The translations under genes were made by a program, and so were the position numbers. DNA of 64,000 bases from Boswellia sacra. Its lineage: Eukaryota > Streptophyta > Magnoliopsida > Sapindales > Burseraceae. Positions 38,421 through 64,000 of the stretch are shown one piece after another. Under the pieces are notes generated by a model, which searched no databases, had not been told where the DNA came from, and worked only from the letters and a program-made list of their open reading frames with translations. Position 1 is the first letter of the stretch, and the number at the start of each line of letters is the position of its first letter. Location of the stretch: positions 292,908 to 356,907 of the forward strand of contig SNVD02009053.1 of the NCBI GenBank assembly GCA_013180625.2, given 5' to 3'.

Positions 38421-38454
38421 CATAAAAGATTGTTTTATTATAGCATCATAAGGA

Positions 38455-38590: not shown

Positions 38591-38703
38591 GATGATGAGA
38601 AAGTTTGACAGTCAAAGGACGAAAGCGAAGATGCCAATAGAAGAAGAGAGAAAGACAAAGTAAGAGTACTTTGTCAACTTTTGTGTCTCACAAACCTCTC
38701 CAA

Positions 38704-38717
38704 AGTAGGGGGTAAGC
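38704..38717 (+). promoter_or_regulatory. Polypurine tract
   Basis: agtagggggtaagc directly precedes the TGTAGACA start of the 3' LTR. Confidence 0.7.
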
Positions 38718-39968: not shown

Positions 39969-39984
39969 CACTACAAGAATTTTT

Positions 39985-42710
39985 AAAATATATGTCACTT
40001 TAAAATATGATTAATTGCCGGTTCTTGGAAAAATAGTCAAATATATAAAAGTCAAACCTGCTTCTTTCAATATGTGTCCCTTGACAATGTCCTCAAAATT
40101 ACACGTGTCATTCCTATATAAATAAGCTAAAATTTCCTCCCTTCCTTTCGCAGCCCTAATTTAGAAATCCCACCCCCTTCCTAAGTCTCTCCTTGAATTC
40201 CTAATCTCTCACCTTTTGAGATCCGAAATCTCTCCACTCCAAAAGCCCTATTCTCATGGAATCGATCCCTAACTCAACCATTCCAAAAGCCCTAGACTCG
40301 TTGAATCCGTAACTCATTTTGGAAAATCTCTAAGTAACTTACCATTCCCTGACGTCTATAGCAAGCCTATGATTTATAACTGCTCTGTCTATTGCTCCCT
40401 CGTCAACTTCAGAGTACTCTTCTTCACTTATCTCACCTAGTCCTTCTGCATCTCGGCCAATAGCTCATAGGTATTTCTCCCTAATTTCAAGTTTTGTTTA
40501 CTAGCTCCAAATTGTTCTTCATTGTTATTTATGAACTTATTAACACATTCTATATGATTGGGTGATCTTTGTAAAACATGTGTAGTTCTTTGGTTTTGAT
40601 TTAAAGTTGGCCCATTTCAAAGAGGAAGCTGTTGGATGTCTAAGTTTTTTTTTCTTTATTTCTTTTTTTTTAAGTTATTACTTTGAAACCTTTCTTCACC
40701 CACCTGCCTTAGTCGTTTGGTGAGTTGCTTTCTTTAATTTCATTTGTTTTTACTCTGCCTGTCTGCTTCTATATGTCTCTCTCTCCCCACTCTCTATTAT
40801 GATCTCTTCCTATTTTTAAAGGTACACGTTTTTGTTTCATCTGTTTCCTCTGTTTTCACATGTTTTCAACTGACATATATTATGTGCAATTTCACTATTT
40901 TCATTTCCCACTTCTCAAAGTTTAAGTTTTGAATGAAGTTAACATATCAAGTTGACAACTTTGTTTGAGTGTGACTAAGTTTAAGTTTTCATTTTCGTTT
41001 TGGGTCTATGAGTTTTGAGCTTGGTTTTTATTTTTCTTTTTATGGTTTTACTATGTAATGTTTGCTTAATTTTTTGTGCTATTATTTAGTTTTGTATTTG
41101 ATTCTGCTTTGATGAAACCATACATTGATAATTTTTTTTCCACTTTCCGTTTTGACTTTTATCTATTTTCTGAAATGGGAAATCATGTGACTCAAACTAG
41201 CTAAAGATATGTATGCCAGCTTTAAAATTCATCTAGGTATGGAGGAGTTATTCTCTTTTGTTGATTGTCTAAACAACCAAATGGAAAATAATAAGAAACT
41301 ATTCTGAGTTAAAGATTAGGTTTTGTTTGGTTGCCAAGAAATGCGAGAAAATGGATAAGAACTGATAAACTTGAATGAAATGGATGACTATTCATCTGGG
41401 TATGAGTTTGTTTTCCTTTGTTTTCACGAGAAACAAAGGGGAAGTATAATTATGAAGAAATGGAGAAGCAAATACGAGACATTTATCCTCCTTTTTCTTC
41501 TTCTCTCCCTTGGCTTTATGGGGTTTTGCCTTGCCTATTTTGGGTGCCATTTTGCATCAAATGTGTTGGATTGGTTATAAATTTGCAGGTTTCAATCTGC
41601 TTCTTTGACGATAAAAACTATGACTTGAATTGAACTTATCGATGAAACTTACAACTCTCTGCATGCAAATCTTGAACAGTAGAAATAGACAAATAGGTAG
41701 ATTTTGAGTGGGAGAAGAGTGTAATATAAAGAACCCAGAAAGTGCTTTTACATGGTGAAGATAAAGGAAACGATAAAGACAGAGTTGTGAGTGGGAGACA
41801 GTTAAAGTGAAGTGAATGTTTGCATGACAAAAGTGCTAGTGAAAGAAATAAAGATAGATATACTTAAAATGATCTTCTTGGTTATTTAGCATCTGGGTCA
41901 TGCAAATATACACAAATATAAAAGAGCGAAGAAGCATTTAGGGCTGCAGTGATTCGAGCTGGTACGTTATAATTATTAGGTGGGGTAATATGGTGGAAAT
42001 GATAAATGAATTGGCAGTGAAATGTCGTGATCATGATCATATGATCAGGATTCTAGAAGCTAGCTAGCTATTTGAGCTAGCAATAGTCAGCGGAATTGCT
42101 TTTTGTTAGTTCATTTGAGATTTGCTTTTGGAGATTTTCTCAATTTCTTTATTTGGAATTACTTTCGAAGATTTCATTACTTTGTTTCACAAAGATTACA
42201 TGTTTTCCAATCGAATTCCCTGAATCAATTTGATACGCAACTTGATGATTTGTTGTGTTTTTATTTGTTTCTTTAATAAAATTTCTTTTTTATTTTCAAT
42301 AACTATTATTACTTTTATCATATTCGTCACATGCATAATTTTTTTTGGCACACAAAACAAAATTCTTAAAGTTTCCTCCTCCCCTTATTTATTTAATATT
42401 TGAACTAAAAAAATTTATTAAATAGAATTTTTATGTCAAGTGTTTGTTTAATTTGAGTACAAAAACCAAAGTCCTGTGCGACAATATGATCATGTGCGTT
42501 CATTAAAGTATAATTAATTAATTAAGGTATCAAACCCCTGTTCCCTACAATAAATTATCAAAAGGCACAGCAGTGATTATTTAATGAGTGAAATCATTCT
42601 CATCATCATGCCACGAGTGCTAGCTAATGAACCACCAATTACTTTCATACAGCTAGCTAGCAAGCAAATTGATAGCTCATCAAGTCATTTGTTGATTCAT
42701 TTTGTGACAG
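39985..42710 (+). other. Non-coding part of the CACTA element
   Basis: Subterminal region to about 40130, then C/T-rich sequence (40140-40470) resembling a gene leader, then AT-rich DNA. 42460-42710 reads like the intron upstream of the HMA exon. No further protein is recognised. Confidence 0.5.
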
Positions 42711-42968
42711 TTAAAGCTTTGAATCAGGCAAGATTAGAAGCAAATGTGAGAGCATGTGGAGGGACAGCTTTCTGGAAAAAATGGCCAAGTCATTATGCAA
42801 TTTCTTCTAGGATTTTGCTTGCTCCATCATTTTTGAAGTATTTATACCATCCTTTGCATTGGTTGGCTATTGGAGTTGTTGCTGTTGGCATCTACCCCAT
42901 CGCTCTTAAAGCCTTTGTGGCAATGAAGAGTTTTAGGCTTGATATCAACACTCTTATGCTTATAGCAA
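42711..42968 (+). pseudogene. Single captured exon of an HMA2/3/4-type Zn/Cd P1B-ATPase
   Basis: Plant HMA2/3/4 pumps export zinc and cadmium across the plasma membrane or into the vacuole. The exon is 258 bp, exactly 86 codons, open throughout and framed by tgtgacag and gtaaatg splice sites. It encodes ALNQARLEANVR, WKKWPSHYAISSRILLAPSF, LKYLYHPLHWLAIGVVAVGI and LDINTLMLIA, covering the region from the end of the cytosolic N-domain through the first two membrane helices. The metal-binding head, the CPC helix, the phosphorylation site (DKTGT) and the ATP domain are not present. Intron-like DNA on both sides indicates genomic capture. Confidence 0.8.
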
Positions 42969-45867
42969 GTAAATGATTTTCCTTTTCCTTTCTCCAATTT
43001 AAATATTTATGTTTTCTATATCACCCACGAGAGATGTGACATGGTCATTTCATATTTTTGTTTAAATTTCATCACTTTTTTTTTTAAATTATGAATTTAT
43101 TAACTTCTTCTAAAGTACGATTTCATTATAGATTAATGTTTGATATGGGAAATAGACAAATATCTCTTATCAATGTAGGTTGTACAGAGTTAATGGTATC
43201 AATAAGTTGTAGATAGCATTATTGTTCTAATAAACTTTAAACTTAAAAGAACATATTAGAGATTTTTATAATCTCAAGAGATGTTTGCTATGAATACTAA
43301 TTTAAAATCAGCCAGATATATTTGTATTTCAACAAATTTTAAATAGAATTCATGGAAATTTTGAATTATCATGGATACAGTAACAATAATAATAATAAAT
43401 TTAATGATAAATTATTATTATTATTAGATTTTTTTTGAAATTAATGATAGCAATTAAAAGAAATAGATAATTTAGTTAATTGGAAACATTAAAAATGTTA
43501 AATATGAATAGAAATAAAAATAACAACTTTAATATTTAAATGAAATTAATATAAACAAGATGCATAGTTAATGTAAGAACTTGGTGAATCTAATGAACTC
43601 AAAAATGCCAACTAAGTACCAAACCTTACCGTTAATATCACTCATTTTAAATGAACATTAATTCCTATTGTAACACACTTTGACTAGCTAAATGTATTTT
43701 ACTGCATATTGTCAAAGGAATATCAAATTTTATATCATTAGTAGTAAACAAAATGGTTGATTTTTTTTTTGGTTTTTTTTAAGGTTGATTTCGTAACAAA
43801 CATAATATATGGCAAATCAAATTTTTATTTTGAAAACTAAGAAAAATATAATCTATATTTTCCCCTCCCATTTTAAGTTAGTGCCTTTGTTGTTGTCACC
43901 GTTTTGTTGTCGTTTTTTGCTTTCCCACTTTTTACAAATATACCTTCAGAAAGCACACAATATAATACAACAAACAACAGTAAGAACAAAATTTATTGTT
44001 CAAACTTAAAACTTGAAATCCTCATCGGGATTCCATTTCCATAATATATCCTTTCATCATGCTTGGCCCATAATTGCTTTACCTTTTAAATTTGCAATAT
44101 TTATGATCTTTACCTTTTAAAAGTATACGAGCTATCTTTTAGAATCATTGAATTGCGACGAATAATATTCATGAAATTTTGTTATAACTATATTAAAATA
44201 TTTATTGTTAAGAGATTTATTTATAATCGTATGATATATTTGGATCAGTTAAACAAAAACTTATAATAGAAAATGCCTAACAAATGATACATAAGAAATA
44301 TTTAGACATAAATCCACAACCTAATGTTTTTTATGCAATTTCTTAACTATTTTTGAAACATTAGATTAAATGACATGATATGATTAGGATTGGATCTTTT
44401 AAATCCTTAAACACATCCTAAGGAGAGAATAGCATCATTTTCTTTTTCACAAACAAATACAAAATACTAGTCAAATAAGTCTTTTTACTTTAATTTTATT
44501 ATTAACTTTTAACTCTTTTTTATTCCTTTTGGATTATATTAAGTCAAAATAGCTTTCTTTCTTTCACACTAAAAGCCACAATAGCTTTCTTGCTTTCACA
44601 CAAAACCAACCAGTACAGAAATGAGAGATAATGACTTCAAAAGTTGGTTAATTGCTTAACCTTTACACCTCACAAAGTTGCAAAGACTTGCTTTCTCCCC
44701 TATTATTATTATTATTAAGTTTTTGTAATTTTCGTTTCATACACTTGCTCAGTTGCTCTTGCATTTGGTCTCTTTGCCTCTAGCTAGTTATTATTAATAA
44801 ACTTACAAATAAATTAAAGCATTAGAATTATTAATTTTATACGAATTTATTGAGAGAGCTAGCTACTAGCTTCATGCAAATGTTTGAGTAGTTTTATAGG
44901 GAATATTAGAGATTTAAAGTGGCATATAAGATACGAATTTCATCTTTTACAGATGCTTATTCACAATCAATACTAGAAGTGCGCACACACACACCCAAAG
45001 AGAGTGAGAGAGAGAGAGAGAGGTGGATAGTATAAGGTGAGCATAAGCTAAGACCTTAATTTTCTTGTACACAAGCAAGGAGAAATGAAATGTGAGGCTA
45101 GCAATTTCAGGCCTCTCATTATAATAATTAGTGTTGGATTGGTTAATTTGTTAAACTTTTTGGGTCAAAACATCTTTTGTTACAGGTGTTTGATTTTATC
45201 TTGCTGGTAGCTTCTCTTGGTTTCTAAGCTTAGGCCTGCCAGCTGCTTCATCTTCCGGTTATTATTCTCTTTCTATCTTTCTATGTCTTGCTATTCTAGT
45301 TTCATTTTCTTGTCTTCCTAGTTTGGTGTTTTAACGAAACAAGTCATAATATATTGGTTTGGTGGTATTATAAATCAAATGTCACAAATCTAGTATGTAA
45401 ATAAATTTGTTTGTTTCATGCACACTTTTTAATGGCTTTATTGTAATATTAAAATCCCTCAAAACTTGATTGTGGTTAAGGACTTTGATCTGATTTCTCT
45501 TTTTATCCTTGTTGTCTTATATGCTTTAATGCTCATTCCCTATCACATAATTTCAGCTGCATGCAAAGTTTATATTGATTTTGTTTATATGATTTTGTTA
45601 CTTCTCTATTCAGCCCTTGCAACATTAATACTAGTTTACATTAATATTAATAGATTATAATTTTACTTTAACTATGAGTATATTTTAATTTAAACAGAAA
45701 AATTGATCTAGATCGTTGAATTAGTATCATAAAATTTAATTAGATTGCCACAGCCAAGAAATACATAATAAAAATCTCAAATTTTGTCCACTAACATCCT
45801 CTTTGATTAGAAGTTAACATTACTAAACAAAATCTTTATTACACAGGTGCATTACTTAACTACCAGA
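42969..45867 (+). other. Non-coding DNA before the transposase gene
   Basis: AT-rich. Includes an AT palindrome of (aat)n/(att)n at about 43385-43428, (TTA)n near 44701-44718 and (GA)n at 45003-45022. The open frame at 45466-45660 is hydrophobic and unrecognised. Promoter and leader of the transposase are expected here but cannot be placed. Confidence 0.5.
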
Positions 45868-46271
45868 ATGGATAAATCTTGGATATGGAAAGATAGATTG
45901 TCTAAAGACTATGAGGATGGGGTTGATAGCTTTCCAGAATTTGCAACTTTGAATTGTATGAATTCAAACCTCATTAAATGCCTATGTAAATCCTATCAAT
46001 GTTGTGTCTTTCACACCTAAGAACAAATACGAGACCATTTATTTAGGAAAGGGTTTGAGACAAAATACAAAAATTGGATTTGGCATGGGGAAACTAACAC
46101 TATGAAATCATCATTTGACGTTTGTGACAATGCATTCAATGATACAGTGGATATGTTCAACGATGCATTCCAATATGTTGATAGTGACCCCAAATGTTTG
46201 AAAAAATTACAAGATGATGCTAAAAACCCTTATACCCGGGTTACACCTCTCACACAAAATTATCTGTCCTA
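45868..46271 (+). pseudogene. Transposase-associated N-terminal domain (CACTA TNP2 gene)
   Basis: The ATG at 45868 starts MDKSWIWKDRLSKDYEDGVD, the usual opening of the Transpos_assoc domain (PF13963). HLFRKGFETKYKNWIWHGE is its conserved end. TAA at 46018 and TAA at 46270 interrupt one and the same frame. Its place directly before the TNP2 core is the normal one. Confidence 0.8.
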
Positions 46272-47573
46272 ATGAAACTATTTAACATAAAAGGGAGGTA
46301 TGGTTGGTCAAATAAAAGTTTCTCTGAATTTCTTGATCTCATTAATGATATCTTGCCACCCAATAATGAAATGCCATCCTCGATGTATGAAGCTAAGAAA
46401 ACAATGGTTTCTTTAGGTTTGTCCTATGAAAAAATACATGCATGCCCTAATGAATGCATTTTGTATAGAAAAGAATACGCATCTTCCACAAGTTGTCCCA
46501 CTTATGGGTTGTCAAGATGGAAAGTCACACTTAAAAGATGTAAACAAAAAAAGGGCATTGCTGCAAAAGTATAGTGTGGTACTTTTCTCCCATTCCAAGG
46601 TTTAGGAGGTTTTTTCAATCTTCTGAGATTGCTAAAAGCTTAACTTAGCATGCCAATAGTAGAGTCATTGATGGTAAACTTAGGCACCCAACCGACACAG
46701 CATCTTGGAAGCTAGTTGACCGTATGTGGCCCGATTTTGCTACTGATAGTAGAAACCTTAGGTTAGCTATTTCAACTGATGGGATAAATCCATATAGTAC
46801 CCTAAGTAGCACCTATAGTTGTTGGCCTGTGGTAATGGTTATGTATAATCTTCCTCCATGGTTATGCATGAAAAAGAGATTCATGATGTTATCTCTTTTG
46901 ATATCGGGTCCATGACAACCTGGCAACGACATCGATGTTTATTTGGCTACATTAATTGATGACTTGAAAATTTTATGGGAGGAAGGTGTTGAGGTCTATG
47001 ATGCCTATAACCAAGAAACTTTTAACTTGCGGGCAATGTTGTTATGGACAATAAATGACTTTCCCGCTTATGGAAACCTCTCAGGTTGTTCTGTCAAAGG
47101 GTATTATGGTTACCCAATTTGTGAGGAAGGAACATCTTCATGTAGATTAAAACATGGAAAGAAAAATGTTTATATCGCCCATAGGCGATTCCTCCCTCAT
47201 AACCATCCATTTAGAAAACTAAAAAAGGTTTTCAATGGCCAATAAGAATTTGATGTTGCCCCTAGGCCCCTAAGTGGGGAGGAAATTCTAAAAAAAGTTG
47301 AGAGAATTGAAAACAATTGGGGGAAGAAAAAAGAGAAAAAACGAAAAAAAATCTGATATTGATGAAAGCATGTGTTGGAAGAAAAAGTCCATATTCTTCC
47401 AACTTCCTTATTGGAAGAATTTATATGTATGTCACAATCTAAATGTTATGCACATTGAAAAAAATGTTTGTGAGAGTATCTATGGCACATTATTAAACAT
47501 TCCTAGAAAAATAAAAGATAATGTTAACTCTAGATTGGATCTCATGGATATGGGTTTGAGGGAAGAGTTGTAA
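46272..47573 (+). pseudogene. CACTA TNP2-type transposase core (broken)
   Basis: TNP2 (Transposase_21, PF02992) is the DDE-class transposase that cuts CACTA ends. Blocks in order: WSNKSFSEFLDLINDILPP, MYEAKKTMVSLGLSYEKIHA with CPNECILYR, then LRLAISTDGINPYSTLSST, NLPPWLCMKKRFMMLSLLIS, PGNDIDVYLATLIDDLKILW, MLLWTINDFPAYGNLSGCSV and IAHRRFLPHNHPFRKL, then NLNVMHIEKNVCESIYGTLL. At least three frameshifts and stops (near 46572, 46913 and 47243) break it. Confidence 0.85.
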
Positions 47574-47597
47574 CCCAAGGTTGGTAATAATCGGACA

Positions 47598-48285
47598 TTT
47601 TTGCCTCCTGCTTGCTATTCACTCAACAAAAAGGAGAAGCAAATTTTCTGTCAAACATTATATGACCTTAGGGTTCCTTTTGGTTACTGTTCAAACTTTA
47701 AAAACCTTGTGTCCTTAGATGATTTAAAGCTGATTGGTCTTAAGTCTCACGATTGTCATGCTCTTATGCAACAACTACTACTAGTAACCATAAGGTCAGT
47801 TCTTCCTAAGCATGTTCGACATGCTATTACAAGATTTTGTATTTTCTTCAATGATATTTGCACCAAGGTGGTTGATGTGCCCAAGTTAAATCGAATACAA
47901 AGTTATCTGGTGGTGACCTTATGTTTGTTAGAGAAGTACTTCCCACCTTCCTTTTTTGACATCATGAATGGTGCATCTTGTAAGAGAAGTGAGGTTATGC
48001 GGACCTGTCTATCTTAGGTGGATGTATCCTTTTGAAAGATTTATGAAAATTCTTAAGGGGTATGTCCGAAATAGAAATCGACTTGAAGGTTGCATTGCTG
48101 AGTGTTACACTGCAACAGAAGCTATTGATTTTTGCTCCGATTATTTACTTGATGGTCATGGAGCTATTGAAGATGATAGTCCATTGCTTGGGGGTCGAGT
48201 CATCTCTATCGGTGAAGAAGAATGGGATCAAGCACATCTTTATGTGTTGAAAAACATGGAACAAGTGCAACCTTTCATCGAGTAA
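47598..48285 (+). pseudogene. CACTA transposase DUF4218 region (frameshifted)
   Basis: FLPPACYSLNKKEKQIFC, GLKSHDCHALMQQLLLVTIR and CLLEKYFPPSFFDIM are DUF4218 blocks. A frame change near 47968 continues with MVHLVREVRLCGPVYLRWMY and GYVRNRNRLEGCIAECY. The gene continues past a short intron-like gap but is then split by the copia element inserted at 48420. Confidence 0.8.
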
Positions 48286-48420
48286 ATGGTTGGTTTTTTA
48301 AAGCATGTTTTATTGATTACTTATATAGTATTTAAAAACTAACAAATTAACTTTTTGTTCTTTTACCTTGTTTTTTTCTTGGCCAATTAGAATGCATATC
48401 AAATCTTTGAAATGACGTTT

Positions 48421-50414
48421 TGTTAGCCCTAAGGCTACATGATAATTTTGATGATAACAATACACATTGATTCATTGAGATTTACTAACATGTTTATTTA
48501 TGTACAAGAGTAATATCATTGAAATAATTGTAAAATCAAGAAAAGGCTTATTAAAATGAAGTGTTGAAGCTAAGGAAAAGACTACATGTTAAAGGCACTA
48601 AAGTTTAAGAACAAGGTTTGACTCAAGGAATGTGACACATGAGCAATGTTCAATCAAATGGTCATATATATCTTTATAGATGTCCAAATGATTTGATTAT
48701 TAATCCTTTGGAAAGCTTACTTAATTTATAACATTTCATATATTTTAAAGAAATTCAAATTTCAAGTGTAAGGTTGTCCAAATCATCATGCAAGTTGAAA
48801 GACAAATGGAAGCAGCTGACATGCGTACTGAATACTCTTTTGGACATATCTTGAGCTAGAAATATCAAAATGACTTGATTCTTATGGAATTGGAAAGAGG
48901 ACTTAATGAGGAACATTTCATATGTTTTGAAGAAATTCAAATTTCAAATGGAAGGCTTACATAATTGACATTAAATTTGATGGACTGACACAGAGAAGAA
49001 AAAATCAACTCATATGAGCACTGAATGATGTTTTATCCATATCTTAAGCTTCAAATATTCAAATGACTTGATTCTTATGGCATTGGAAATATGATTCAAT
49101 GGAGCACATTTCATATTCTTTGAAGAAATTCAAATTTCAAATGGAATGCCGACATAATAAACATGCAAATTGGTGGACTGACACAAGAAAGAAAACTCAA
49201 GTCACATGAGCACCGAATGGTGTTTTGGCCATATCTTGAGCTACAGATATCCAAATGAATTTTTTTTTATGCGTTGGAAATCTTATTCAATTGTACAGAT
49301 CTTTAATGTTTTGCAAATTTTCAAATTTCAAACGAAACATTGACAAAAATGGCAGACAAGATTACCGTTTTTATGGTGGGCAGAAAATTTAGAGTTAGTG
49401 TCTTCACTTGATTAAGTTCTTCCCATTTGCCTATAAAAGGAGCCCTTCTCCCATGCATTCAACAAGCATTGATCAAGCAAAAAATAAGAGAAATATCAAG
49501 TCTAGAGAGCTTTTATATTCTTTATCTACTCTTTGAAGAGAGTTGTACTTTTGTTGTAAAAATTTTCTTTGTTCTTGTATTGTGGTGAGAGTGAGATTTT
49601 CTTGTAAAGGATAAAAAGTTATCCTTGAGAGAACTCTTCGTGTGTTGTTATCAAGAGTTGAAAGAAGTTGCCTTGGTGAGGTTGTTCATCAAGAAGAACT
49701 CTTGGTGTGGTGTTATCAAGGGTTGAAGGAAGTTGCCTTGGTGAGGTTGTTCATCAAGAAGAACTCTTGGTGTGGTGTTATCAAGAGTTGAAGGAAGTTG
49801 CCTTGGTGAGGTTGTTCATCAAGAAGAACTCTTGGTGTGGTGTTATCAAGGGTTGAAGAAAGTTGCCTTGGTGAGGTTGTTCATCAAGAAGAACTCTTGG
49901 TGTGGTGTTATCAAGAGTTGAAGGAAGTTGCCTTGGTGAGGTTGTTCATCAAGAAGAACTCTTGGTGTGGTGTTATCAAGAGTTGAAGGAAGTTGCCTTG
50001 GTGAGGTTGTTCATCAAGAAGAACTCTTGGTGTGGTGTTTTATCAAGAGTTGGAAGAAAAAGTCTTGGTGAGGTTGTTCATCAAGCAAGTTGTAAAGAAT
50101 TCTACAACTTAGTGGAAAGCCTAGCTTGTGGAGCTAGGAGCCCGTGGACGTAGGCAAGGTTTGCCGATCCACGTAAATTGAGTTTGCACTCTCTCTATCC
50201 CTTTCCTCTTTACATTTACTTGCACTTGTGATTGTTCATCATTATTATTCTTTTGATTGCATCTTTGATAAATTCTAATTTCATCTTCTTCACCTTTATT
50301 CTCAAAGAAAGAGTGAACTAATTTTTGATCTTTCAAGAAAAGTTTTCTAAATCCGTTTTGATAAATAAAAACCCAATTCACCCCCCCTCTTGGGTTGCCA
50401 TACCTGGGTCAACA
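48421..50414 (+). repeat. 5' LTR of inner copia element
   Basis: Starts TGTTAGCCC, ends GGGTCAACA. The first 900 bp hold about four imperfect copies of a 180-190 bp module (each with gaaattcaaatttcaaatgg, near 48750, 48930, 49123 and 49313). Then a tataaaagg promoter box at 49432 and a 65-bp array. Confidence 0.9.
49640..50095. repeat. 65-bp tandem array in 5' LTR, six copies plus one degenerate
   Basis: The gttgccttggtgag phrase recurs at 49667, 49732, 49797, 49862, 49927 and 49992, exactly 65 bp apart; a degenerate copy follows near 50055. It lies downstream of the TATA box, hence in the transcribed leader. Confidence 0.9.
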
Positions 50415-50416
50415 AG

Positions 50417-50428
50417 TGGTATCAGAGC
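50417..50428 (+). promoter_or_regulatory. Primer-binding site (initiator Met tRNA)
   Basis: TGGTATCAGAGC is the standard copia primer site complementary to initiator methionine tRNA, two bases after the LTR. Confidence 0.9.
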
Positions 50429-50469
50429 AAGGTTGCTCAATTTTTTAAATCTTAATCGATTTTTGAGCT

Positions 50470-51775
50470 ATGGCAACTTTTAATTCAACTTCATATGTTG
50501 AGGGACTTTCTATCTCTAGACCTCCATTTTTTAATGGAAGTGATTACTCTTATTGGAAAACTAGAATGAGTATTTTCTTGAAATCTTTTGATTATGATTT
50601 GTGGTCTATTGTTTTGGAAGGACCTTTTGTTCCTACCAAAATTGAAAATGGGGAATGCATGCTTAAAGAACCTAAAGAGTTTAGTGAAGATGATAAAAAG
50701 AAATTGAGTTTGAATGCTAAAGCTATGAATGTGTTGTATTGTGCTCTAGATAGAAATGAGTTTAATAGAATATCTACTTGTTCTACGGCACAAGAAATAT
50801 GGCACACACTTGAAGTAACTCATGAAGGAACTAGTCAAGTTAAAGAATCCAAAATTAGTATGCTAGTTCATAGTTATGAGCTTTTTAAGATGAAATCGGA
50901 TGAATCAATTTCTGAAATGTTTACTAGATTTACGGATATTGTAAATGGTTTGAAATCTCTTGGTAAATCTTATTCTAATGTTGAAAAGGTAAGAAAGATT
51001 CTTAGGTGTCTACCAAAATCTTGGGAGCCAAAGGTGACGGCAATTCAAGAAGCAAATAACCTCACCAAACTACCATTAGATGAACTTATGGGTTCTCTCA
51101 TAACTCATGAAATCATCTTGAAGGAGAATGAAGAAGAAGATTGCGATGTGGCAAACATGTGCTTCATGGCTTTAAGAGAAAATGAGGTAAGTATTCTAAA
51201 CTATGATCCTAAACTTTCATATGATGAATTACTTGAAGCATTCCAAAATTTACATGTGCAAGTTGATAAACAAAATTCAAAAATCAATGCTTTCAAAAAG
51301 AAGTCAAAAGTCATGTTATCTCAATTAGAAGAATTGGTGGAAATAAATGAAGCTTTAGAAAATGAGAATGAAATCTTAAAGCAAAAAGATTTTGAAAGTT
51401 TGGAAAATCAAATACATTTATTAAAAACTGAAAATGGGATTTAAAACAAAAGGATTTTGATAAATTAGAGAAAGAAAATGTTATTTTGAAAAAGGAAAAT
51501 AATGACTTAAGAAATATTGTTGATAGTTTTACAAAAAGCACAAAAAATTTCAATTCTATGTTACAAAACCAAAGGTGTGTTTTTAATAAAAGAGGGTTAG
51601 GATATAAAACTCATAAAAATCAAAAGTATTTTAAAAATTATTTTGCTCATGCATCTTCTAGGAATAATCCTAATCATTCATGTACTTATTGTGGAAGAAA
51701 AGGACACAAAGTGCATTCTTGCTATATTAAGAGAAATCCTAATTTGAAACAAATATGGGTTCCAAAAGTACCATA
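50470..51775 (+). pseudogene. Copia gag (one frameshift)
   Basis: Capsid-like protein of the element. The ATG at 50470 begins MATFNSTSYVEGLSISRPPF. FNGSDYSYWKTRMSIFLKS and CSTAQEIWHTLEVTHEGTSQ are the DUF4219/UBN2 gag core, and a coiled-coil follows. The frame stops at 51442 through what looks like a 1-bp loss; the sequence continues in the next frame to the zinc knuckle CTYCGRKGHKVHSC (about 51680-51721), CX2CX4HX4C intact. Confidence 0.85.
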
Positions 51776-51829
51776 ACTAACCCCCAAGGACCCAAGAACT
51801 TTTGGGTACCAAAAAGTTACTCCTTGAAT

Positions 51830-52812
51830 GTTGATTGTAGAGTCAAAGTGGCAAAAACAAGTGGTACTTAGATATTGGATGCTCAAGGCATATGACCGGA
51901 GATGCCTCCAAGTTCTCAAGATTAATCATGAAGAAAGGAGGATATGTGACCTTCGGTGATAATGCCAAAGGAAGGGTAATCGGACATGGTGATATTGGTA
52001 ACCCTTCTTCACCTATTATTGAAAATGTTTTGCTTGGTAATGGTTTGAAACATGATCTGATTAGCATTAGTCAATTGTGTGATAAGAGATATTTTGTTGC
52101 TTTTGAGCCTAATAGATGTGTCATTAAGAATGTTAGTAACAATAAGATATTATTTATTGGTAATAGATGTGGTAATATTTATACAATTGATATTGATGAT
52201 CATGTGGAAAATTGTTTCATTGTTAATCATGATGCTTGTTTATGGCATAGAAGATTAGGTCATGCTAGCATGGACACAATTTCAAAAATTTCTAAAAATG
52301 ATTTAGTTGATGATCTTCCAAAAATAAAATTTGAAAAGTATAAGATTTGTGATGCTTGTCAATTTGGAAAACAAGTGAGAACTTCTTTTAAACAAAAGAA
52401 ATTTATTTCAACAAATAAACCTCTACAATTACTTCATTTGGATTTATTTGGACCATCAAGAACTCAAAGCCCTGGTGGAAAGTATTATGTTTTTGTTATT
52501 GTGGATGATTATTCAATATTCACTTTGGTGTTATTCTTGAAAACTAAAAATGAGGCCACACAAGCTTTTTCAAAATTTGCAAAAAGAGTCCAAAATCAAA
52601 AAGGGTATTCTATTGTGTCTATTAGGAGTGATCATGGTGGTGAAGTAGACAATGTTGCATTTGAAAATCTTTGTGATGAAAATGGTTTTGAACATAATTT
52701 TTCTGCACCTAGAACTCCACAACAAAATGGTGTTGTTAAGAGAAAAAATAGGACTATCCAAGAAATGGCTAAGACCATGTTACTTGAAAATAATTTGCTA
52801 AAATATTTTTAG
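51830..52812 (+). pseudogene. Copia protease and integrase (catalytic changes)
   Basis: WYLDIGCSRHMTGDASKF (from 51862) is the protease site; the active-site triplet is D-I-G at 51871-51879 in place of D-S/T-G. CLWHRRLGHASMDTISKIS is the integrase zinc-binding part. LLHLDLFGPSRTQSPGGK and IRSDHGGEVDNVAFENLCDE hold the two catalytic Asp, but the catalytic Glu of GVVERKNR is Lys (AAG at 52738-52740). A TAG in place of Trp ends the frame at 52810. Confidence 0.85.
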
Positions 52813-53563
52813 GCCGAAGCCGTTAATACCGCATGGTTTATAATCAATAAAGTCCATATTAAAGCTTTAATAAAGAAAACTCCTTATGAACTTTGGAAAG
52901 GAAGAAAACCCAACATTGGATTTTTTAAAGTTTTTGGACGTAAATGTTTTATTTTAAACACTAAGGATAACCTTGGAAAATTTGATGCAAAAGCCGATGT
53001 TGGAATTTTTTGTTGGCTACTCCAACCATAGTAAGGCATATAGAGTTTTTAACAAAAAGACTCTTACTATTGAAGAATCTATGCATGTTGAATTTGATGA
53101 AACTAATGTGATTTCTTCAAAGAATTTAGATGATGATATTGTTGAGGTTGAAAGGCAAATCAAGGAATCAAGGCTTGATGAAAAGAGTCAAAATGAATTA
53201 CAACTTCAACAATAAAAGCTTGAGGAAATAAATGACTCTTCCCAAGAATTACCAAAGGAATGGAGGTATGCAAAAGCTCACCCTAAAGATCTCATTATTG
53301 GTGAACCATCACAAGGTATAAAAACTAGATCTTCTTTTAGGAACTTTGGTAATTATTTTGCATTTGTCTCTCAATTTGAACCAAAATCTTTTAAAGAAGC
53401 CAAAAATGACGAAAGTTGGATTTTGGCTATACAAGAACAATTGAACCAATTTAAGAGAAATCAAGTATGGAAATTAGTCCCTAGACCCAAATATGACTAA
53501 ACCCCTTAGTCAAGATAGATTTTGCATAATTAAAAGAGAATTAGGCATATTGGATATATCTTA
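52813..53563 (+). pseudogene. Copia integrase C-terminus fused to RNase H tail; RT and RNase H deleted
   Basis: The integrase tail (EAVNTAWFIINKVHIKAL, TPYELWKGRKPNIG) continues with shifts. The RT leader ESWILAIQEQLNQFKRN then QVWKLVPRPK ends near 53490. The next codons, MTKPLSQDRFCIIKRELGIL from 53492, are the extreme C-terminus of copia polyproteins, ending TAA at 53561. All of RT and nearly all of RNase H are therefore missing between them. Confidence 0.85.
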
Positions 53564-53751
53564 ATTTTGCTTTTAGGTGATTATCTTTGAATGGTAGCAT
53601 ATGTTAAGGGAGGCATATATTTAGGGGGAGTAGTTAATTTGATTACATCTTTTTGATGATAACAAACGGGGGAGAAATGGTTGAATTGCTTACTTATATT
53701 CATTCTAGATTTTAGATATTATTTTAAAGCAATCAATGATTTGTCATCTTC

Positions 53752-53765
53752 AAAAAGGGGGAGAT
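53752..53765 (+). promoter_or_regulatory. Polypurine tract
   Basis: aaaaagggggagat directly before the 3' LTR. Confidence 0.85.
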
Positions 53766-55562
53766 TGTTAGCCCTAAGGCTACATGATAATTTTGATGAT
53801 AACAATACACATTGATTCATTGAGATTTACTAACATGTTTATTTATGTGCAAAAGTAATATCATTGAAATAATTGTAAAATCAAGAAAAGGCTTATTAAA
53901 ATGAAGTGTTGAAGCTAAGGAAAGGACTACATGTTAAAGGCACCAAAGTTTAAGAACAAGGTTTGACTCAAGTAATGTGGCACATGAGCAATGTTCAATC
54001 AAATGGTCATATATATCTCTATAGATGTCCAAATGATGTGATTCTTAAGCCTTTGGAAATATTACTCAATTTATTACATTTCATATGTTTTAAAGAAATT
54101 CAAATTTCAAGTGTAAGGTTGTCCAAATCATCATGCAATTTGAAAGACAAATGGAAGCAGCTGGCATGAGCACCGAATACTCTTTTGGACATATCTTGAG
54201 ATAAAAATATCAAAATAACTTGATTCTTATGGAATTAGAAAGAGGACTTAATGAGGAACATTTCATATGTTTTGAAGAAATTCAAATTTCAAATGGAAGG
54301 CCGACATAATTGACATGCAATTTGGTGGACTGACACAGAGAATAAAAAATCAACTCATATGAGCACCGAATGATCTTTTATCCATATCTTGAGCTAGAAA
54401 TATTGAAATGACTTGATTCTTATGGCATTGGAAAGATGATTCAATGGAGCACATTTCATATTCTTTGAATAAATTCAAATTTCAAATGGAAGGCCGACAT
54501 AATACACATGCAAGTCAGTGGACTGACACAAGGAAGGAAAATCAAGTCACATGAGCATCAAATGGTGTTTTGGCGATATCTTGAGCTACAGATATCCAAA
54601 TGACTTGGTTCTTGATACGTTGGAAAGCTTATTCAATTGTGCAGATCTTTAATGTTTTGAAGATTTTTAAATTTCAAATGGAACATTAACAAAAATGGCA
54701 GACAAGAGTATGGTTTTTATGGTGGCAGAAAATTTGGAGTTAGTGTCTTCACTTGATTAACTTCTTCCCATTTGCCTATAAAAGGAGCCCTTCTCCCATG
54801 CATTCAACAAGCATTGATCAAACAAAAAACAAGAGAAATATCAAGTCTAGAGAGTTTTTATATTCTTTATCTACTCTTTGAAGAGAGTTATACTTTTGTT
54901 GTAAAAATTATCCTTGTTCTTGTATTGTGGTGAGAGTGAGATATTCTTGTAAAGGATAATAGTTATCCTTGAGAGAACTCTTGTTGTGTGTTATCAAGAG
55001 TTGAGGAAAGTTGCCTTGGTGATGTTGTTCATCAAGAAGAACTCTTGGTGTGGTGTTATCAAGAGTTGAAGGAAGTTGCCTTGGTGAGGTTGTTCATCAA
55101 GAAGAACTCTTGGTGTGGTTTTATCAAGGGTTGAAGGAAGTTGCCTTGGTGAGGTTGTTCATCAAGAAGAACTCTTGGTGTGGTGTTATCAAGAGTTGAA
55201 GGAAAAAAGTCTTGGTGATGTTGTTCATCAAGCAAGTTGTAAAGTATTCTACAACTTAGTGGAAAGCCTAGCTTGGGGAGGAGCTAGGAGCCCGTGGACG
55301 TAGGCAAGGTTTGCCGAACCACGTAAATTGAGTTTGCACTCTCTCTATCCCTTTCCTCTTTACATTTACTTCCACTTGTGATTGTTCATCATTATTATTC
55401 TTTTGATTGCATCTTTAATAAATTCTAATTTCATCTTCTTCACTTTTATTCTCAAAGAAAGAGTGAACTAATTTTGATCTTTCAAGAAAAGTTTTCTAAA
55501 TCCGTTTTGGTAAATAAAAACTCAATTCACCCCCCTTTTGGGTTGCCATACCTGGGTCAACA
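53766..55562 (+). repeat. 3' LTR of inner copia element
   Basis: Matches the 5' LTR throughout; carries only three good 65-bp units (phrase at 55010, 55075 and 55140) plus a degenerate one. The 197-bp length difference equals three units plus 2 bp. Confidence 0.9.
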
Positions 55563-55567
55563 CGTTT

Positions 55568-56397
55568 CCCTCGTCAAGCTAGAAATAGTAAGTGGCCGCA
55601 AGGTGAACATATCACACTTTCATCAAATGGTTGAAAGATGAGGTTAATGCTTTTATAAACCACATTTTTGAACTTAATCTTTCCAATATATTCTTATTAA
55701 TACTATATAACTCACTAATTGTAGAATATAAAACTATTGCCTTTTACTAGGTGGCCAAATCAATTAATAATCAAGAGTAGTTGTCCTCCAAGTTGAAGTG
55801 CTTAGCAGAAAGCCTCATCAATATGTCATAAGTTATTCAAGCTATATTATCAACAATTTTCATTACCACACAAGAGATCATGGGGACGACAAGGTGCACC
55901 AAAACAGTGGAGTTAGCATTGTTGCAACAACAATGCAAATTTCGAGTGCCAAAGACAAGAATCCAATAGTTGGAGAGTTAACCTTTTACGGAGTAATAAA
56001 AGAGATATGGTCTCTTGATTATCAGTTGCCTAGTATTCCAATCTTTAAGTATGACTGGGTTGACAATAAAGGGGGCATTAGGGTAAATGAACTTGGGTTG
56101 ACTTTGGTAGATCTTAGTCGTATTGCTCACAAGTCCGATTCCTTTGTCCTAGCTTCACAAGTGAAACAAGTTTTTTATGTGACAGATCAATGTGATGCAA
56201 GATGGTCTATAGTGCAATTTACAGCCGATAAGTCTTACAAAATAGATAGAAGTCAAGACCAAATTCCCTCTTTGGTAGAACATCATCCATTCACAAATGT
56301 TATGCCTAGTGTTGAGTCGTTTGATAACATTGATGGTAATGAGATGAACTACATGCGTGATAATTGTGAGGGTACTTGGGTTGACAATAACACTTGA
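55568..56397 (+). pseudogene. CACTA transposase C-terminus with DUF4216
   Basis: The first codons after the copia (SKWPQGEHITLSFIKWLKDE) continue the sequence interrupted at 48420. After an intron-like gap, 55798-56397 is open and encodes DUF4216: GVSIVATTMQISSAKDKNPI, YYGVIKEIW-like FYGVIKEIWSLDYQLP, IRVNELGLTLVDLSRIAHKS and LASQVKQVFYVTDQCDARWS. It ends with TGA after an acidic tail. Confidence 0.8.
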
Positions 56398-56568
56398 AGG
56401 AGCATTAAAAAAAATTTGGTAATGACATATCTCAAATTGTGTACTTGTTAATTTTGTTTTGTTTGTTGTATGTCTCACACTAATACAATGATTTGTCTTA
56501 ATGTCTTTTTATAATGTTTTGTACTTAACAATTTTTTTTATTTCATTTCATTTTTTCATTTACCTAGA

Positions 56569-59500
56569 TGGCAACAAACTCTCAAAACCAAGATGGACAA
56601 AGCAATAGTGGTTATACAGCAAAAAAAAAAACAAGGAAAAGCAAGGGAGTTATCAACTCCAGAAAAGGAAAGAGCACTTCTGTATGTTTATTGCACTAAT
56701 ATATTGCTTACTCTTATTGACCTTAATTTCTTTTAACTGAAATCTTTTCTTTACTTAACTTTCATTTTTCATTGACCTATGTGTCAATGGATTTGCGAAA
56801 ACATGACAGAGAAAGTGATGGTGGACATGCAACAACAGATTTTAGAAAAATTAGGGGACTTCGCTGGTCTAAAAAAAGAAATAGGAGTGGTGTACGTCTC
56901 TTATTTGTACAAATTATTACTTGAACTTATTGTCCTTTTGTTTTGTACTTAATAATTTCTTTTATTAAGCTTTTTTTAACACTTAACTAGGTGGCAAAGG
57001 ATTCTAAAAACTGTGATGGACAAGGTGACAATAGACATGCAACAACAGATTCAAAGAAAACCTTAAGAAATGGGAATGCTGTATGTCCCTTGTTTTAATC
57101 AATTGCCTGCTGATAATGTCTTTTTTCTTTTGTACTTGAACTTTTTACTCATTTCACTTATTTCTTTCATTCACCTAGTAGGCAACGGATGAACAAAATG
57201 GTGATGGACAAAGTGACAGTGGTCATGCAACAATAGATTTGAGAAAAACCAGAAGAATTAGCACGAATGGAAAAAGAAATGGGACTCATGTGTGCCTCTT
57301 GATCTAATAGATATTGTTTACTCTTAATGTCATTTGTCTTTAGTACTTCAACTTTTTTCTGATTTCACTTATTTATTTCATTTACCTAGGTGGTAATGGA
57401 TGAACAAAATGGTGATGGACAAAATGACAATGGTCAAGCAACATCTTCAACAAAAACCAGAAGAATTTGCACAAATAATAGAAGAAATAGAAGTGCAACA
57501 GAGGGTAAAATTCCTATTAAAGTTAATGAGTGGGACCAAGCAGTGGGACCAAATCATAATAATTTTGTTTCTACTATTGGTGTTGAGGCATGAAATGCAA
57601 CTCCTATCTCAATTCATGGCTGGAGATATGTTGATCAGGAAATAAAAGAAAATATATGGCAAACTATACTAGTACAAATATCTAAAAACCATGTTGCAAT
57701 ATGAATGCATTTATATTATATACTTTTTGTTAATTATCTAAGAATACATTGTTTTGTTAACATTCGTATTAAATTCATTGTAGAAAGATTATGATATTGA
57801 CATCTGATATAAGAAGCGGTTGCTACAACAAGCTTGAAGTGCATGGAAAAACTTTAAGACGTATCTTACAAAGAATTGGGTCAGGCCTAACTTAGACAAT
57901 CCAAAAGCATTAGCTCAGCCACCCAAAAGGTATAAATGCATTAAAAACTAGCACTGGAGGGAATTTGTGAGACAACGTTTAACAAAAAAAATGGAAGGTA
58001 TTGCACTATATCAACCTTGTTACAATACAATTGATAGTACTTTGAATTCAATTATCTAATATAATTTAAAATCTGCTCATGGTTTGAAGGAGAATAGCAA
58101 GAAGCAAATGGAGAGACGAAGGGCAAACCAATATGACCATACAACGGGAAGGTCTGGTTCTATTCGTGTGGAAGAGAACATGTTAATCCTTTTTACATTT
58201 ACATGCATTTTTAATTTTTTCCTTTGGCTACTCTGGTTTATTAATCAATTACATTGCTTTATCATTTACTATTTATGCAGCGACAAGAAAGTGGAAATTG
58301 GAGTAAGCCCATTGACCGATCTGAAATGTGGAAAAGAGCTCGAAAAAGGAAGAATGGTGATTATCATCCCAATGTTACCCCTATTGTTGAGAGAATTGTA
58401 AGTAAATATTACAAAGCTCAATATATAATTTGAAGAATCTGTATTAGTTAGTCCTTATTAAAATCTTTATCCATTTTCATCCACCAAACCCACTTTAGTC
58501 AACATCTCAAAAACTTTAAATTTATTTATACATGTCCATAGGTTTTTTCAAAACTTTGATGTTAATGATTTCCTAACCTTAACTGTATGCTCTATGAAAG
58601 CCACTAAACCTCTGTTCTCTAACTCTTATTAAATAGAAATGAATAGATATTTGGAAAACATTCTAAAAATAATGATAACTTTCATTAATCAATTATTCCC
58701 AGGTGCAGAAAGTGGTCTAAAGAAATTATGAATGATTGTTTTTATTGAAAAAGTGGTACTATCATTTTATTTGTTGAAAAAATATGTTGGTTATAGACCT
58801 GATTATGCTATCATGATTTTATCATATAATTTTTTTCATTTATAGGATGGGCTTAAAGAACTAGCAGAATCTGGTGTCATAGACATGTCTGAGGGTGAAC
58901 ATATCCTAGTTCGTGCTTTAGGCACTAAAAAGCATACTGGTAGAGTGAGGGCTTAGGCAAATTTGTCACACCAACCTCTTATTTCAACACTGTTGGATCT
59001 GATTACAGGGTAGATAAAGAAAAAATGGAGTTAAAGAGGCAGATACAAGAAAGAGATGCCATTATAGCAGACTTACGTGCTCAAATACCAGTCACTAAGT
59101 CGGTAGCATCGAGCAATACCATGGATGACACTAAAGATATGGCCAAGCAATACAAGACAGACAAAGTGGGCAACAACCTAAAAAATTTGGAAGAGGTGAT
59201 AGATCAAGAAAAACCAACTGTTAGGAAACCTGCAATTAGTGGCAACAAAATGCCAAAAGCAATGAAATTGAAAGGTTTCATGGAGAATAATATGCAAAAC
59301 ACAGGAGAGCAACATCAATTGGTAGCAATATTATTCAATGAATTCCTTATATATTTTGATGAGACATTTTTTTTTTTAACTAAGAATGATGACATTCATT
59401 ATTTTCATACTTTACAGGAACAAACTTGTGACTTAGCCATATATGTGGGCTCTAATAGAGTTATTGTTACAAGTGGAACCATCATTGATAAAGATGAAGG

Positions 59501-59621
59501 AAAACCAACACGGGTTGTTGTCATTGAATTAGTTTCAAATAAAGCAGCCAGGTTGCCTCTAGTTAAAGATGATCAAGAGAAATCTTTAGTGTATGATGCA
59601 GTGGAAGAACATGTGGAATAG
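56569..59621 (+). pseudogene. Second CACTA gene, N-terminal part with tandem exons and Transposase_24-like region
   Basis: Five similar exon-plus-intron modules of 190-215 bp start near 56570, 56780, 56992, 57182 and 57390; each exon encodes a variant of DEQNGDGQSDSGHAT plus a basic tail, and the introns also resemble each other. Then come blocks typical of the plant En/Spm transposase family (PF03004): VGPNHNNFVSTIG, AWKNFKTYLTKNW, RPNLDNPKALAQPPKRYK, KQMERRRANQYDHTTGRSGS, SEMWKRARKRKNGDYH and HILVRALGTKKHTGRVR. 59025-59621 opens with a coiled-coil (MELKRQIQERDAIIADLRAQ). Stops near 57590, 57800 and 58955 suggest decay, although some may be intronic. Confidence 0.65.
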
Positions 59622-61105
59622 CCTGCAGATCTTGTTATTTTACAAGCTGAGGTAAAAAATTATGAGACAATTCCTTCTTCAAAGTAATTTGCTTATAAAT
59701 CAATGTAATAACAAAGATAACTTTTGTTCCAATATAGGTCCCAGCCCAAAAATTCACCAACAGAGAGTTGACAGCGCTTAACACAGAGAAGCATACAATT
59801 GAGAATCCTGAAGCTGTAGAAGTTTTTGAGGACCTAGTGAATCTTGCAGTAGGAGTTGTTGAATATGTGATAGTGGCATTTGATGAGGGCTTATTTGGGT
59901 ACTCTGTATCCACCTTCTTGAATTGTGAAGACATGTTTGCTGTGATTAACTATAAGGAGCTCACTCAGAACTGCATCTCTATATATAGCAGGTTATGATT
60001 TTTTTTTTTTTTACAATTAAGTCTATTAACATTTCTTTTAATAGTAATTTGTATAAAACATTATTGTAACTCAAATATTATTTTTTTTCTTGGACTTGTA
60101 GTTAACTTTATCAAAAATTTCAGAGTGATAACAGTCGAGTCACATTTAGGTTTGTCAACCCATCAACCATACTTGTTGATCAACTGAGCAAAAAAGAACT
60201 ACGATCTCAAATTTCTCAATCCTTCTCAAGCAAGATCAAAGGGTTTAACAACAAAAACTACATTTTAATTCTGTATACCCCAGGGTATGTTTTCTTGCCA
60301 AACTTATAGTTAATCTTATTTCATAACCATTTTATAAATCAGGTTAGAGATTCTAACTTGTGAGAGTTTCATGATATGATAGTTACCATTGGACATTAAT
60401 TGTGATTGATATGTCTTCTTTGTCAATCTTTTTCCTTGATTCAATGGGAAAAGGAGCCAAGCAAGATGTTAAGGAAGTCATTAACAAGTATGTGTTTTAG
60501 TGCCTTCAATGTTGATTATTAACATCATAATAATATGTTTAATTAAGTTGCAATATTTATGTGTGATTGTATGTTTTGCCAGAGGATTATTATTGTGGCT
60601 GTCATCATCCAGGAGAAAAAATAAAAAGTACACATTTGAATGGACGAATGTAAAGGTACATTTAATTGATTTTGATATGAGATTATAAAAATTGACTTGT
60701 GCAGAAAAGTTTTTTGCTTACAATGCCACTTTTTCATGTATACTTGCAGGGACCAAGACAAGTTGGCAGTACGGAATGTGGTTATTATGTTTTAAGAAAC
60801 ATGAAAGAGATTATGCAAAACCCCAAGATCCTCTGTGAAAATGTAAGCAATCCTAATTTGGGTTTCTCAAGTTTTCAGTGCGTTGTTATTAACATATATT
60901 TGTTTTGTTGTTAGTACAACAAGAAGGACCATTATACAATGGAGGAGATAAATGAAGTTAGATCAGAATGGGCTAGGCTTGTATCCAAGATTGTAAGAGA
61001 ATGGCATGAAAAGAAGAAGGCTACAAAATCAGGTTCATCAAATCCTCGAACTATGATGAATTTCCATCCAAGTTTAGTGTTCAATTTATTACTTCTAACA
61101 TGACA
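59622..61105 (+). pseudogene. Ulp1-type (C48) cysteine protease part of the second CACTA gene
   Basis: Ulp1 enzymes cut SUMO from proteins; copies carried by plant transposons have unknown substrates. Exons in order: FTNRELTALNTEKH (59753 on), VTFRFVNPSTILVDQLSK (60130 on), YILILYTPG, then YHWTLIVIDM with catalytic His (60387-60389), FFLDSMGKGAKQD with catalytic Asp (60438-60440), GPRQVGSTECGYYVLRNMKE with oxyanion Gln (60759-60761) and catalytic Cys (60777-60779), and MEEINEVRSEWARLVSKIV. Introns with gt-ag borders separate them. All four key positions are kept, so the domain could be intact if spliced correctly; whether the gene is still expressed cannot be judged. Confidence 0.7.
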
Positions 61106-61600
61106 CTTAAATTTTGTAGATTGAAGGAGTTTACATGTGTGTGGATAGTTGTGTATATAACTTTTTGGAAATTGTATATAGCTTGCTGATAACAACTCAC
61201 AGAATAAGGAGTGTCAACAACCATTTTTTGTGTGCTTTGATTACGAGTACCCCATGGAGTAGTTTTTGGGATGGTTTTGGAATGCCTTATCCATGAAAGT
61301 TGGTTGGTGGTTAAATGACCTCAAATGCATAGTTTTTGGGAAATTAAAACTTGATGAAGTCTAATGTATAATATTCTTTTTTGTTAATGGATGAAAGATT
61401 ATGACATTGATGTTTAAAGTTGATGTTTATATGTTGAATCTATCATTCATTAATTTGATCTTTTATTAATTTGTAAACAACCCAGCTTGGTAAGTTTTGC
61501 CTTCATCTTTTTGATATAATTTGTTAGCTCCAATATGATGTTTTTATGTATTTAGTTGCATGGTTTTGCACCATTTAACTTTTGTTTGCTAGTATAACAG
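61106..61600. other. Non-coding DNA after the protease gene
   Basis: AT-rich with no recognisable gene; probably 3' untranslated and spacer sequence. Confidence 0.4.
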
Positions 61601-63000
61601 CTTTTTAAGGCTTATACAGTGGTGGTGATGCATGCTTCTGATTTTGGAAGGGATCAACAAGGATTTGCTTCATGAAGTATGTATTCATCTTCCTTTGCCA
61701 TATGCAAAAGATAGAATTGTTCATTTTGTTTCAGATATCGATTGATGAAATGTGACTAGTTAAATGTGTTTTATGTTTTTGTTAATTTAATTGAGACTCG
61801 TGTCAGAAGTACTTTCATTTCAATCATTTCCATATTTGGTCATTGAGAAACTGTAGCAAAATAGAAAAATCATGTTGTAGAAATTGTTTATGGTGGAGAT
61901 GTTTTCAAGAAAGTCTCTTGTTTGTTAAGTGGAAATTGTTTCTTGTTAAGTGTAGTTTCTAAAGATAAGGTATATGGTGCTTGTATATTTTCATCTTAGC
62001 TACAGACCACATATATATTCATCGATTAAGGCATATGCAGATGATAATGTTCTTCAAGTAAGCATTCTATCTGTGTACTTAGCTTGTAAATCAGATGCTT
62101 TGTTTACATTGATTAATCTGCATTGTTACATTGTTACATTGTTTGATTTGCTGCTTTCTATGTCTGACATGGCATGAGACTATTGTGTTTGTATTGTGTT
62201 GTGCTCAGGTACAATTTTATTTAGTGCTTGTGCCATTCTAATACAGGCACAATCCATCGCATTGCTTCTTTGTTGGAGTTATTTTTAATTAACTTTTCAT
62301 TTTTGGTCCATTTGCACCGAATTAATGATTTTATAGCAGCCAAATTTTGACTAACAATTTTTTAATTGGATGCTAAGGTTTTGGAGCATCTCTTATATCA
62401 AATACAACAATTTCTATGTTGTAATGTTTTATCATGTAGGGAATATTTTATTGTTTTAGAATTTGAATTAAAACTGTGAGACTAATTGTTCGTAAAAATT
62501 GAGGCTAAGGCACGTTAGTGTATTTGTATCTTTGTTCTGTTGATTGTCTGACAAAACTTTTGGGTTTTCTAGGTGCTTACCCAACATCCCACAATTACTT
62601 TATCAGTACCATGTGGTGCTATGCAATCAAGTCTTTCTGGCGATTCTCTTTTTTCGAAGTTGAATTCAGTTCTACAAACAAAAATAAGTGCAAGGGTAAG
62701 TTAGCCGTTTATCATTTACTTTTTTTTTAATTGAATTGTATTCCTGTTCTAATTGAAGTTTTCTCATTCTTTTTTTTTTTTCCATGTTTGAACAGGAGAG
62801 TATTCTAAGCCTAATGAAGCAAGTGTCTGTCGGAGACTCTCCATGTATACACAATCAATTCTGCCTAGATTTGCTCCCTTTTTTTTGGGGGGGTATAAGA
62901 TGATCTTATCTTGTCTTTCCATTTACTCAGGTAACCGTGCAGTTGATGGAGGGAATACATCAACGAATATGGCTACGGAGAGATCTTTGGTATGTGATCA
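61600..63000 (+). pseudogene. Exon-like pieces of an unidentified gene
   Basis: Several short open blocks are framed by plausible splice sites: about 61999-62057 (YRPHIYSSIKAYADDNVLQ), 62573-62695 (41 codons, contains LSVPCGAMQSSLSGDSLFSK), from 62796 (ESILSLMKQVSVGDSPC) and about 62932-62990 (GNRAVDGGNTSTNMATERSL). The blocks from 62573 and 62796 join in one frame across the intron. I cannot name the gene. If the CACTA right end lies past 64000 these are inside it and therefore captured; otherwise they are host sequence. Confidence 0.4.
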
Positions 63001-63841: not shown

Positions 63842-63903
63842 ATAATACTGGGCTGATACAAAGGGCCGGTATCAGCAAAGGGCCAGTATCAGCCCAGTAT
63901 TAT
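63842..63903. repeat. Perfect 18-bp inverted repeat with direct repeats in the loop
   Basis: Arms ataatactgggctgatac (63842-63859) and gtatcagcccagtattat (63886-63903) are exact complements. The loop repeats aaagggcc(g/a)gtatcag. It may be part of the right subterminal array of the CACTA element. Confidence 0.75.
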
Positions 63904-64000
63904 ATATTTTTAAATAATAAATACATGTCGGTTCTTAACACTCACATAATATTTAGACAACATGTCACTTATCAACCCTCATCTTAGGTAGGCACATAGC

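What the first reader, a model, noticed from the sequence alone, without database searches (positions are those of the whole stretch)
42711..42968. Intact HMA-type metal-pump exon carried by a CACTA element
An 86-codon exon of an HMA2/3/4-type Zn/Cd ATPase, free of stops and with both splice sites, sits in the same orientation as the transposase genes. It could be spliced into element transcripts or give rise to small RNAs that match the host metal-pump gene.
Basis: partly seen in the sequence, partly recalled or inferred. Interest (0 to 1): 0.75.

Follow-up and report, generated by a model that had tools for sequence, protein, structure and literature searches.

The report
Metal-pump gene piece in CACTA transposon
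A plant jumping gene copied a 3-kilobase piece of the host's zinc/cadmium pump gene, one exon plus flanking intron, and spread it through the genome; the exon looks intact mainly because the copy is young, so this is a clear but ordinary case of gene capture by a transposon.

Summary
Window 42711-42968 (+) is the second coding exon of an HMA2/3/4-type Zn/Cd P1B-ATPase, with AG and GT at its ends and no other HMA exon found in the window. It lies inside a CACTA element whose 5' end is 39969; the 3' end lies past the window, which is also the contig end. The host assembly holds the donor, a complete-looking HMA gene on contig C1707. The element carries a contiguous 3.1-kb DNA copy of it (window 41856-44967): part of the preceding intron, the exon, and the next intron to 51 bp short of the following exon. 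Eleven element copies carry the exon. The junctions compared are the same, so one capture was followed by spread. The exon appears to be a drifting passenger: it has diverged from the donor as much as the introns have (no significant contrast in 11 of 11 copies), dN/dS is near 1, 20 random substitutions leave it stop-free about half the time, and two exon-less elements sit at different sites. Chimeric transcripts and siRNAs are untested. Host-exon capture by CACTA elements is already published.

The parts
42711..42968 (+). Captured HMA2/3/4 exon (second coding exon of the donor gene), 258 bp, open frame from 42713, AG before and GT after
41856..44967 (+). Whole captured segment of the donor HMA gene: part of the preceding intron, the exon, most of the following intron; 90.8% identical to contig C1707
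39969..39979 (+). 5' terminal inverted repeat start CACTACAAGAA; the matches of seven relatives (L010, L014, L015, L018, L019, L035, L036) begin exactly at 39969
39969..64000 (+). CACTA element; 3' end lies beyond the window, which is also the end of contig C4574; about 196 bp more by comparison with L014
41485..41550 (-). Second host-like fragment, MAPKIGKAKPHKAKGEKKKKED, opposite orientation; resembles exon 1 of a TSS/REC (CLU-related) gene, identity recalled and untested
   Evidence: sequence; other copies
46916..48282 (+). TNP2 transposase remnants in different frames: Transposase_21 at 46916-47242, DUF4218 split over 47574-48014 and 47968-48282; some frame changes could be introns
48421..55562 (+). 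Copia retrotransposon inserted in the CACTA element, CGTTT duplicated on both sides, LTR pieces 93.5-95% alike
55771..56394 (+). Open frame with the DUF4216 part of the CACTA coding region
60375..60497 (+). Peptidase_C48 (Ulp1) piece, further coding region of the element

Best explanation
A CACTA element of this plant captured, at the DNA level and most likely once, a contiguous 3.1-kb piece of the host's HMA2/3/4 metal-pump gene, placing it 5' of its transposase gene. The element then spread and decayed by internal deletions and insertions. The exon is a neutrally drifting passenger and still looks intact because the capture is young (about 6% divergence). Shown: donor, junctions, element ends, spread, absence of any sign of selection. 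Inferred: capture by repair of a gap or break that copied donor DNA (a few matching bases at the left junction), and lack of function of the exon.
For: Donor: on C1707 nine stretches aligned to a castor-bean HMA protein cover its residues 1-953 in order, without stops, and no second gene of this type was found. The copied stretch includes intron on both sides, so it is not a retrocopy. Left junction: the same, point differences aside, in the window and six other copies; right junction: the same in the window, L018, L033 and L034, the last two without the exon. Five distinct insertion sites among the seven exon copies whose 5' end was fetched. Target duplications: TTC in L014, CTT in L019-L020, CAA in the exon-less C7257 element. 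Neutrality: exon against intron difference from the donor has Fisher p 0.22 or more in 11 of 11 copies; dN is near dS in ten copies; the window's 20 changes fall 7, 10 and 3 on codon positions; chance of no stop after 20 substitutions 0.50-0.62. Exon-less elements keep the captured intron, and two of them sit at different sites.
Against: In 7 of 11 copies the exon frame is still open, and 132 of 238 donor-exon 21-mers survive in at least one copy, so an effect on the donor is not excluded. With 258 bp the selection test has little power. The window copy's own 3' end and target duplication cannot be seen. L010, at the same site as L019-L020, has two extra bases at its 3' junction, so its duplication does not match directly. 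No element of this family from before the capture was identified.
Confidence: 0.93

Rival explanations
1. The captured segment acts on its donor: element transcripts give siRNAs that match the single HMA gene, or the likeness to a needed host gene restrains silencing of the element (epigenetic conflict).
For: One donor gene found against eleven element copies of its exon. Perfect 21-mers in some copy cover 234 of 258 bases of the donor exon, against none in the other eight donor exon stretches. The review PMC13317346 (passages) reports siRNA reservoirs from captured genes in maize.
Against: No small-RNA or methylation data here. Forms that lost the exon also moved, although they keep intron matches.
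Confidence: 0.12
2. The exon is spliced into element or host transcripts and makes chimeric proteins, as in soybean Tgm-Express1.
For: AG and GT kept, length a multiple of three, open frame, same orientation as TNP2. Captured exons in Tgm-Express1 are spliced (PMC1947982, abstract and section 6).
Against: The donor site is weakened by G to A at -1; acceptor AG lost in L009 and L014; codon pattern shows no constraint; TNP2 matches lie in different frames.
Confidence: 0.1
3. The exon is the remnant of a degraded HMA gene at this place, and not part of the CACTA element.
For: Only one exon is seen in the window.
Against: The segment starts and stops inside introns at the same bases in several elements, and lies between the shared 5' end at 39969 and element sequence further 3' in relatives at different insertion sites.
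Confidence: 0.01

Closest known systems
Tgm-Express1 (soybean CACTA with five host gene fragments; PMC1947982, abstract and section 6 read)
   Same: CACTA element carrying exon and intron pieces of unrelated host genes with splice sites kept
   Different: There the pieces were shown to be spliced; here expression is unknown, and the window copy still has transposase remnants
Jozin CACTA-like elements of Chenopodium (PMC8978399, passages read)
   Same: Captured host gene fragments lie 5' of ORF 1; coding region with Transposase_21, DUF4218 and DUF4216
   Different: Other genes captured; here the donor locus and both junctions are identified
Pack-TYPE / Pack-CACTA elements (PMC8903248, abstract; PMC13317346, passages)
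   Same: TIR-bounded elements multiplying host gene fragments; derivatives such as L010 and L014 lack the TNP2 region
   Different: The window copy is not a short transposase-free element; it keeps TNP2 and C48 remnants

Membership tests
CACTA (En/Spm) superfamily | Terminal inverted repeats beginning CACTA | tested here: met
   CACTACAAGAA at 39969; TTCTTGTAGTG at the 3' end of L010, L014, L016, L019-L020 and L032. The window's own 3' end is not held.
CACTA (En/Spm) superfamily | 3-bp target site duplication | tested here: met
   3 of 4 relatives with both ends: L014 TTC, L019-L020 CTT, C7257 element (L035, L032) CAA; the fourth, L010, shares the L019-L020 site with two extra bases. Not testable for the window copy.
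CACTA (En/Spm) superfamily | TNP2-type transposase | tested here: met
   Transposase_21 E 4.4e-46, DUF4218, DUF4216, in separate frames
HMA2/3/4-type Zn/Cd P1B-ATPase gene | Exon homologous to this subgroup | tested here: met
   19 of 19 reported matches carry the P-type ATPase domains PF00702 and PF00122; 8 of the 18 named are labelled HMA2, HMA3 or HMA4
HMA2/3/4-type Zn/Cd P1B-ATPase gene | Complete gene with metal-binding, phosphorylation and hinge regions at this locus | tested here: not met
   Only one exon in the window; the full set of exons is on C1707
Captured host gene fragment (transduplication) | Donor copy elsewhere, segment inside the element, shared by copies at different sites | tested here: met
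Tgm-Express-like exon splicing | Captured exon present in processed transcripts | not testable with these tools
   no RNA data

The most novel reading that the evidence does not exclude
The CACTA family works as a dispersed source of small RNAs, or of chimeric transcripts, matched to the one HMA2/3/4 metal-pump gene found in this plant, so that element load tunes zinc and cadmium loading, or likeness to the pump protects the element from silencing.
Probability: 0.1. Interest if true: 0.6.

Novelty: new member of a known kind. Interest (0 to 1): 0.3.

Why it matters
It is a well resolved case of exon capture: donor gene, both junctions, later spread, and loss of the exon in derivatives can all be read in one genome. 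It shows that an open frame with splice sites inside a transposon is weak evidence of function, because a young capture stays open about half the time. If small RNAs from it reach the single metal-pump gene, it would be a natural test of the epigenetic-conflict idea.

Tried and rejected
Remnant of a local HMA gene: rejected by shared junctions in dispersed elements. Purifying selection on the exon: no sign at the power available. Two separate captures: not supported for the copies compared, since the junctions are the same. Retrocopy: rejected, intron is present on both sides. Host identification from a copia gag protein: no close match, the best-scoring at 67%. The donor gene's last exon scores best against Pistacia and Mangifera (82%; Corchorus is 83% over less of the query), with only the 7999 candidates sharing most words scored, so a plant near Anacardiaceae in Sapindales (order) is inferred, species unknown. 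Rfam and tRNA scans of the window found nothing. A paper search on HMA genes and CACTA showed no report of such a capture among 15 listed papers (titles and abstract starts only). Counting all elements with the right-hand junction failed: the genome search was busy each time. The identity of the second fragment as a TSS/REC exon is recalled and was not tested. One match in the donor gene holds a TAA; it falls in the GTAAGG at the exon's 3' end, outside the exon stretch.

Full report
Observation. Window 42711-42968 (+) reads without stops from 42713 and matches plant HMA2/3/4-type P1B-ATPases: 19 proteins at E <= 0.001 among 83 candidates, best 2e-25, 52-66% identity, 98-99% coverage; 8 of the 18 named ones are labelled HMA2, HMA3 or HMA4. 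The exon ends are AG and GT. The 19 proteins find no further credible HMA exon in the window.

Host genome and donor. The window is the last 64 kb of contig C4574 in a 638.6-Mb assembly. The exon has 13 matches there: eleven element copies (one split in two pieces, one near a contig end) and the donor gene on C1707 (sorted). In the donor, nine aligned stretches cover residues 1-953 of a castor-bean HMA protein in order, with no stops; its first exon has the Pfam HMA domain. A search with a cacao HMA protein found no second gene of this type; matches outside C1707 and the exon copies are 25-50% identical (only 43 of 161 candidates were scored, so a paralogue could be missed).

The captured segment. 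Window 41856-44967 aligns to the donor in one alignment at 90.8% identity, from inside the intron before the exon to 51 bp before the next exon. The left junction is the same, point differences aside, in the window and the six other copies printed, and the right junction in the window, L018, L033 and L034. By BLAST, ten of eleven copies start at 41856; the eleventh, L017, is cut by its contig end. This points to one DNA-level capture.

The element. Matches of seven relatives begin at window 39969, CACTACAAGAA. The 3' ends seen are TTCTTGTAGTG. Three of four relatives with both ends have a 3-bp duplication: TTC in L014, CTT in L019-L020, CAA in the C7257 element. The fourth, L010, sits at the L019-L020 site with two extra bases. 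L009 shares the window's flank and is 97.6% identical over 36208-46167, so it is an allele or a duplicate of the same insertion. L014 (10,589 bp) and L010 (7,944 bp) lack the transposase region. The captured piece lies 5' of the TNP2 matches, as reported for Chenopodium CACTA elements (PMC8978399, passages).

Is the exon under selection? Difference from the donor in exon against intron is 7.8% against 5.9% for the window, and no copy of 11 shows a significant contrast (Fisher p 0.22-1.0). The window's 20 exon changes fall 7, 10 and 3 on codon positions 1, 2 and 3. dS and dN against the donor are 0.049 and 0.088 for the window, and both lie between 0.03 and 0.10 for the ten unsplit copies. With 20 random substitutions the chance of no stop is 0.50-0.62. 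Of 11 copies, 7 are open, three have a stop or frame damage (L014, L015, L018) and one is split. The acceptor AG is lost in L009 and L014. Three further elements, fetched because one search showed them truncated and one search lacked them (L032, L033, L034), have no exon but keep captured intron. L032 and L033 share a truncation point yet belong to elements at different sites. One search lists two more places with that truncation point and two more with that of L034; those four were not fetched. So forms without the exon also moved. At about 6% intron divergence, and neutral rates of 5e-9 to 1.3e-8 per site per year (recalled), the capture is roughly 2 to 6 million years old.

Possible effects. 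132 of 238 donor-exon 21-mers occur in at least one of eleven copies, covering 234 of 258 bases; of the 21-mers of the other eight donor exon stretches, none do. The window copy alone holds 33 of the 238. Small-RNA matching to the donor is therefore possible but untested. Splicing of captured exons is known from Tgm-Express1 (PMC1947982, abstract and section 6). Captured genes as siRNA reservoirs and the conflict idea are in a 2026 review (PMC13317346, passages).

Verdict. The finding is real and its frame is right: an HMA exon inside a CACTA element. It belongs to a known kind, and its intactness is explained by youth better than by function.

Noticed in passing
41485-41550 (-): A second host-like coding fragment, MAPKIGKAKPHKAKGEKKKKED, inside the same element; 41380-41855 gave 36 matches in the genome, on some contigs in two forms, as if fuller elements hold it twice and the window copy arose by deletion between the two. 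Identity as TSS/REC exon 1 is recalled.
   Followed up: partly
48421-55562: Copia retrotransposon with CGTTT target duplication nested in the CACTA element; both LTRs hold an internal array of about 65-bp repeats.
   Followed up: partly
56478-57495: Degenerate tandem array (about 66% alike, period about 210 bp) between the DUF4216 and C48 parts of the element; related sequence in L011 and L018.
   Followed up: no
38718-39968 and 19795-20999: Two 78.5% alike repeats; the CACTA element begins exactly where the first one breaks off, at 39968/39969.
   Followed up: partly
63840-63905: Hairpin-like repeats GGGCTGATAC...GTATCAGCCC near the 3' end of the element.
   Followed up: no
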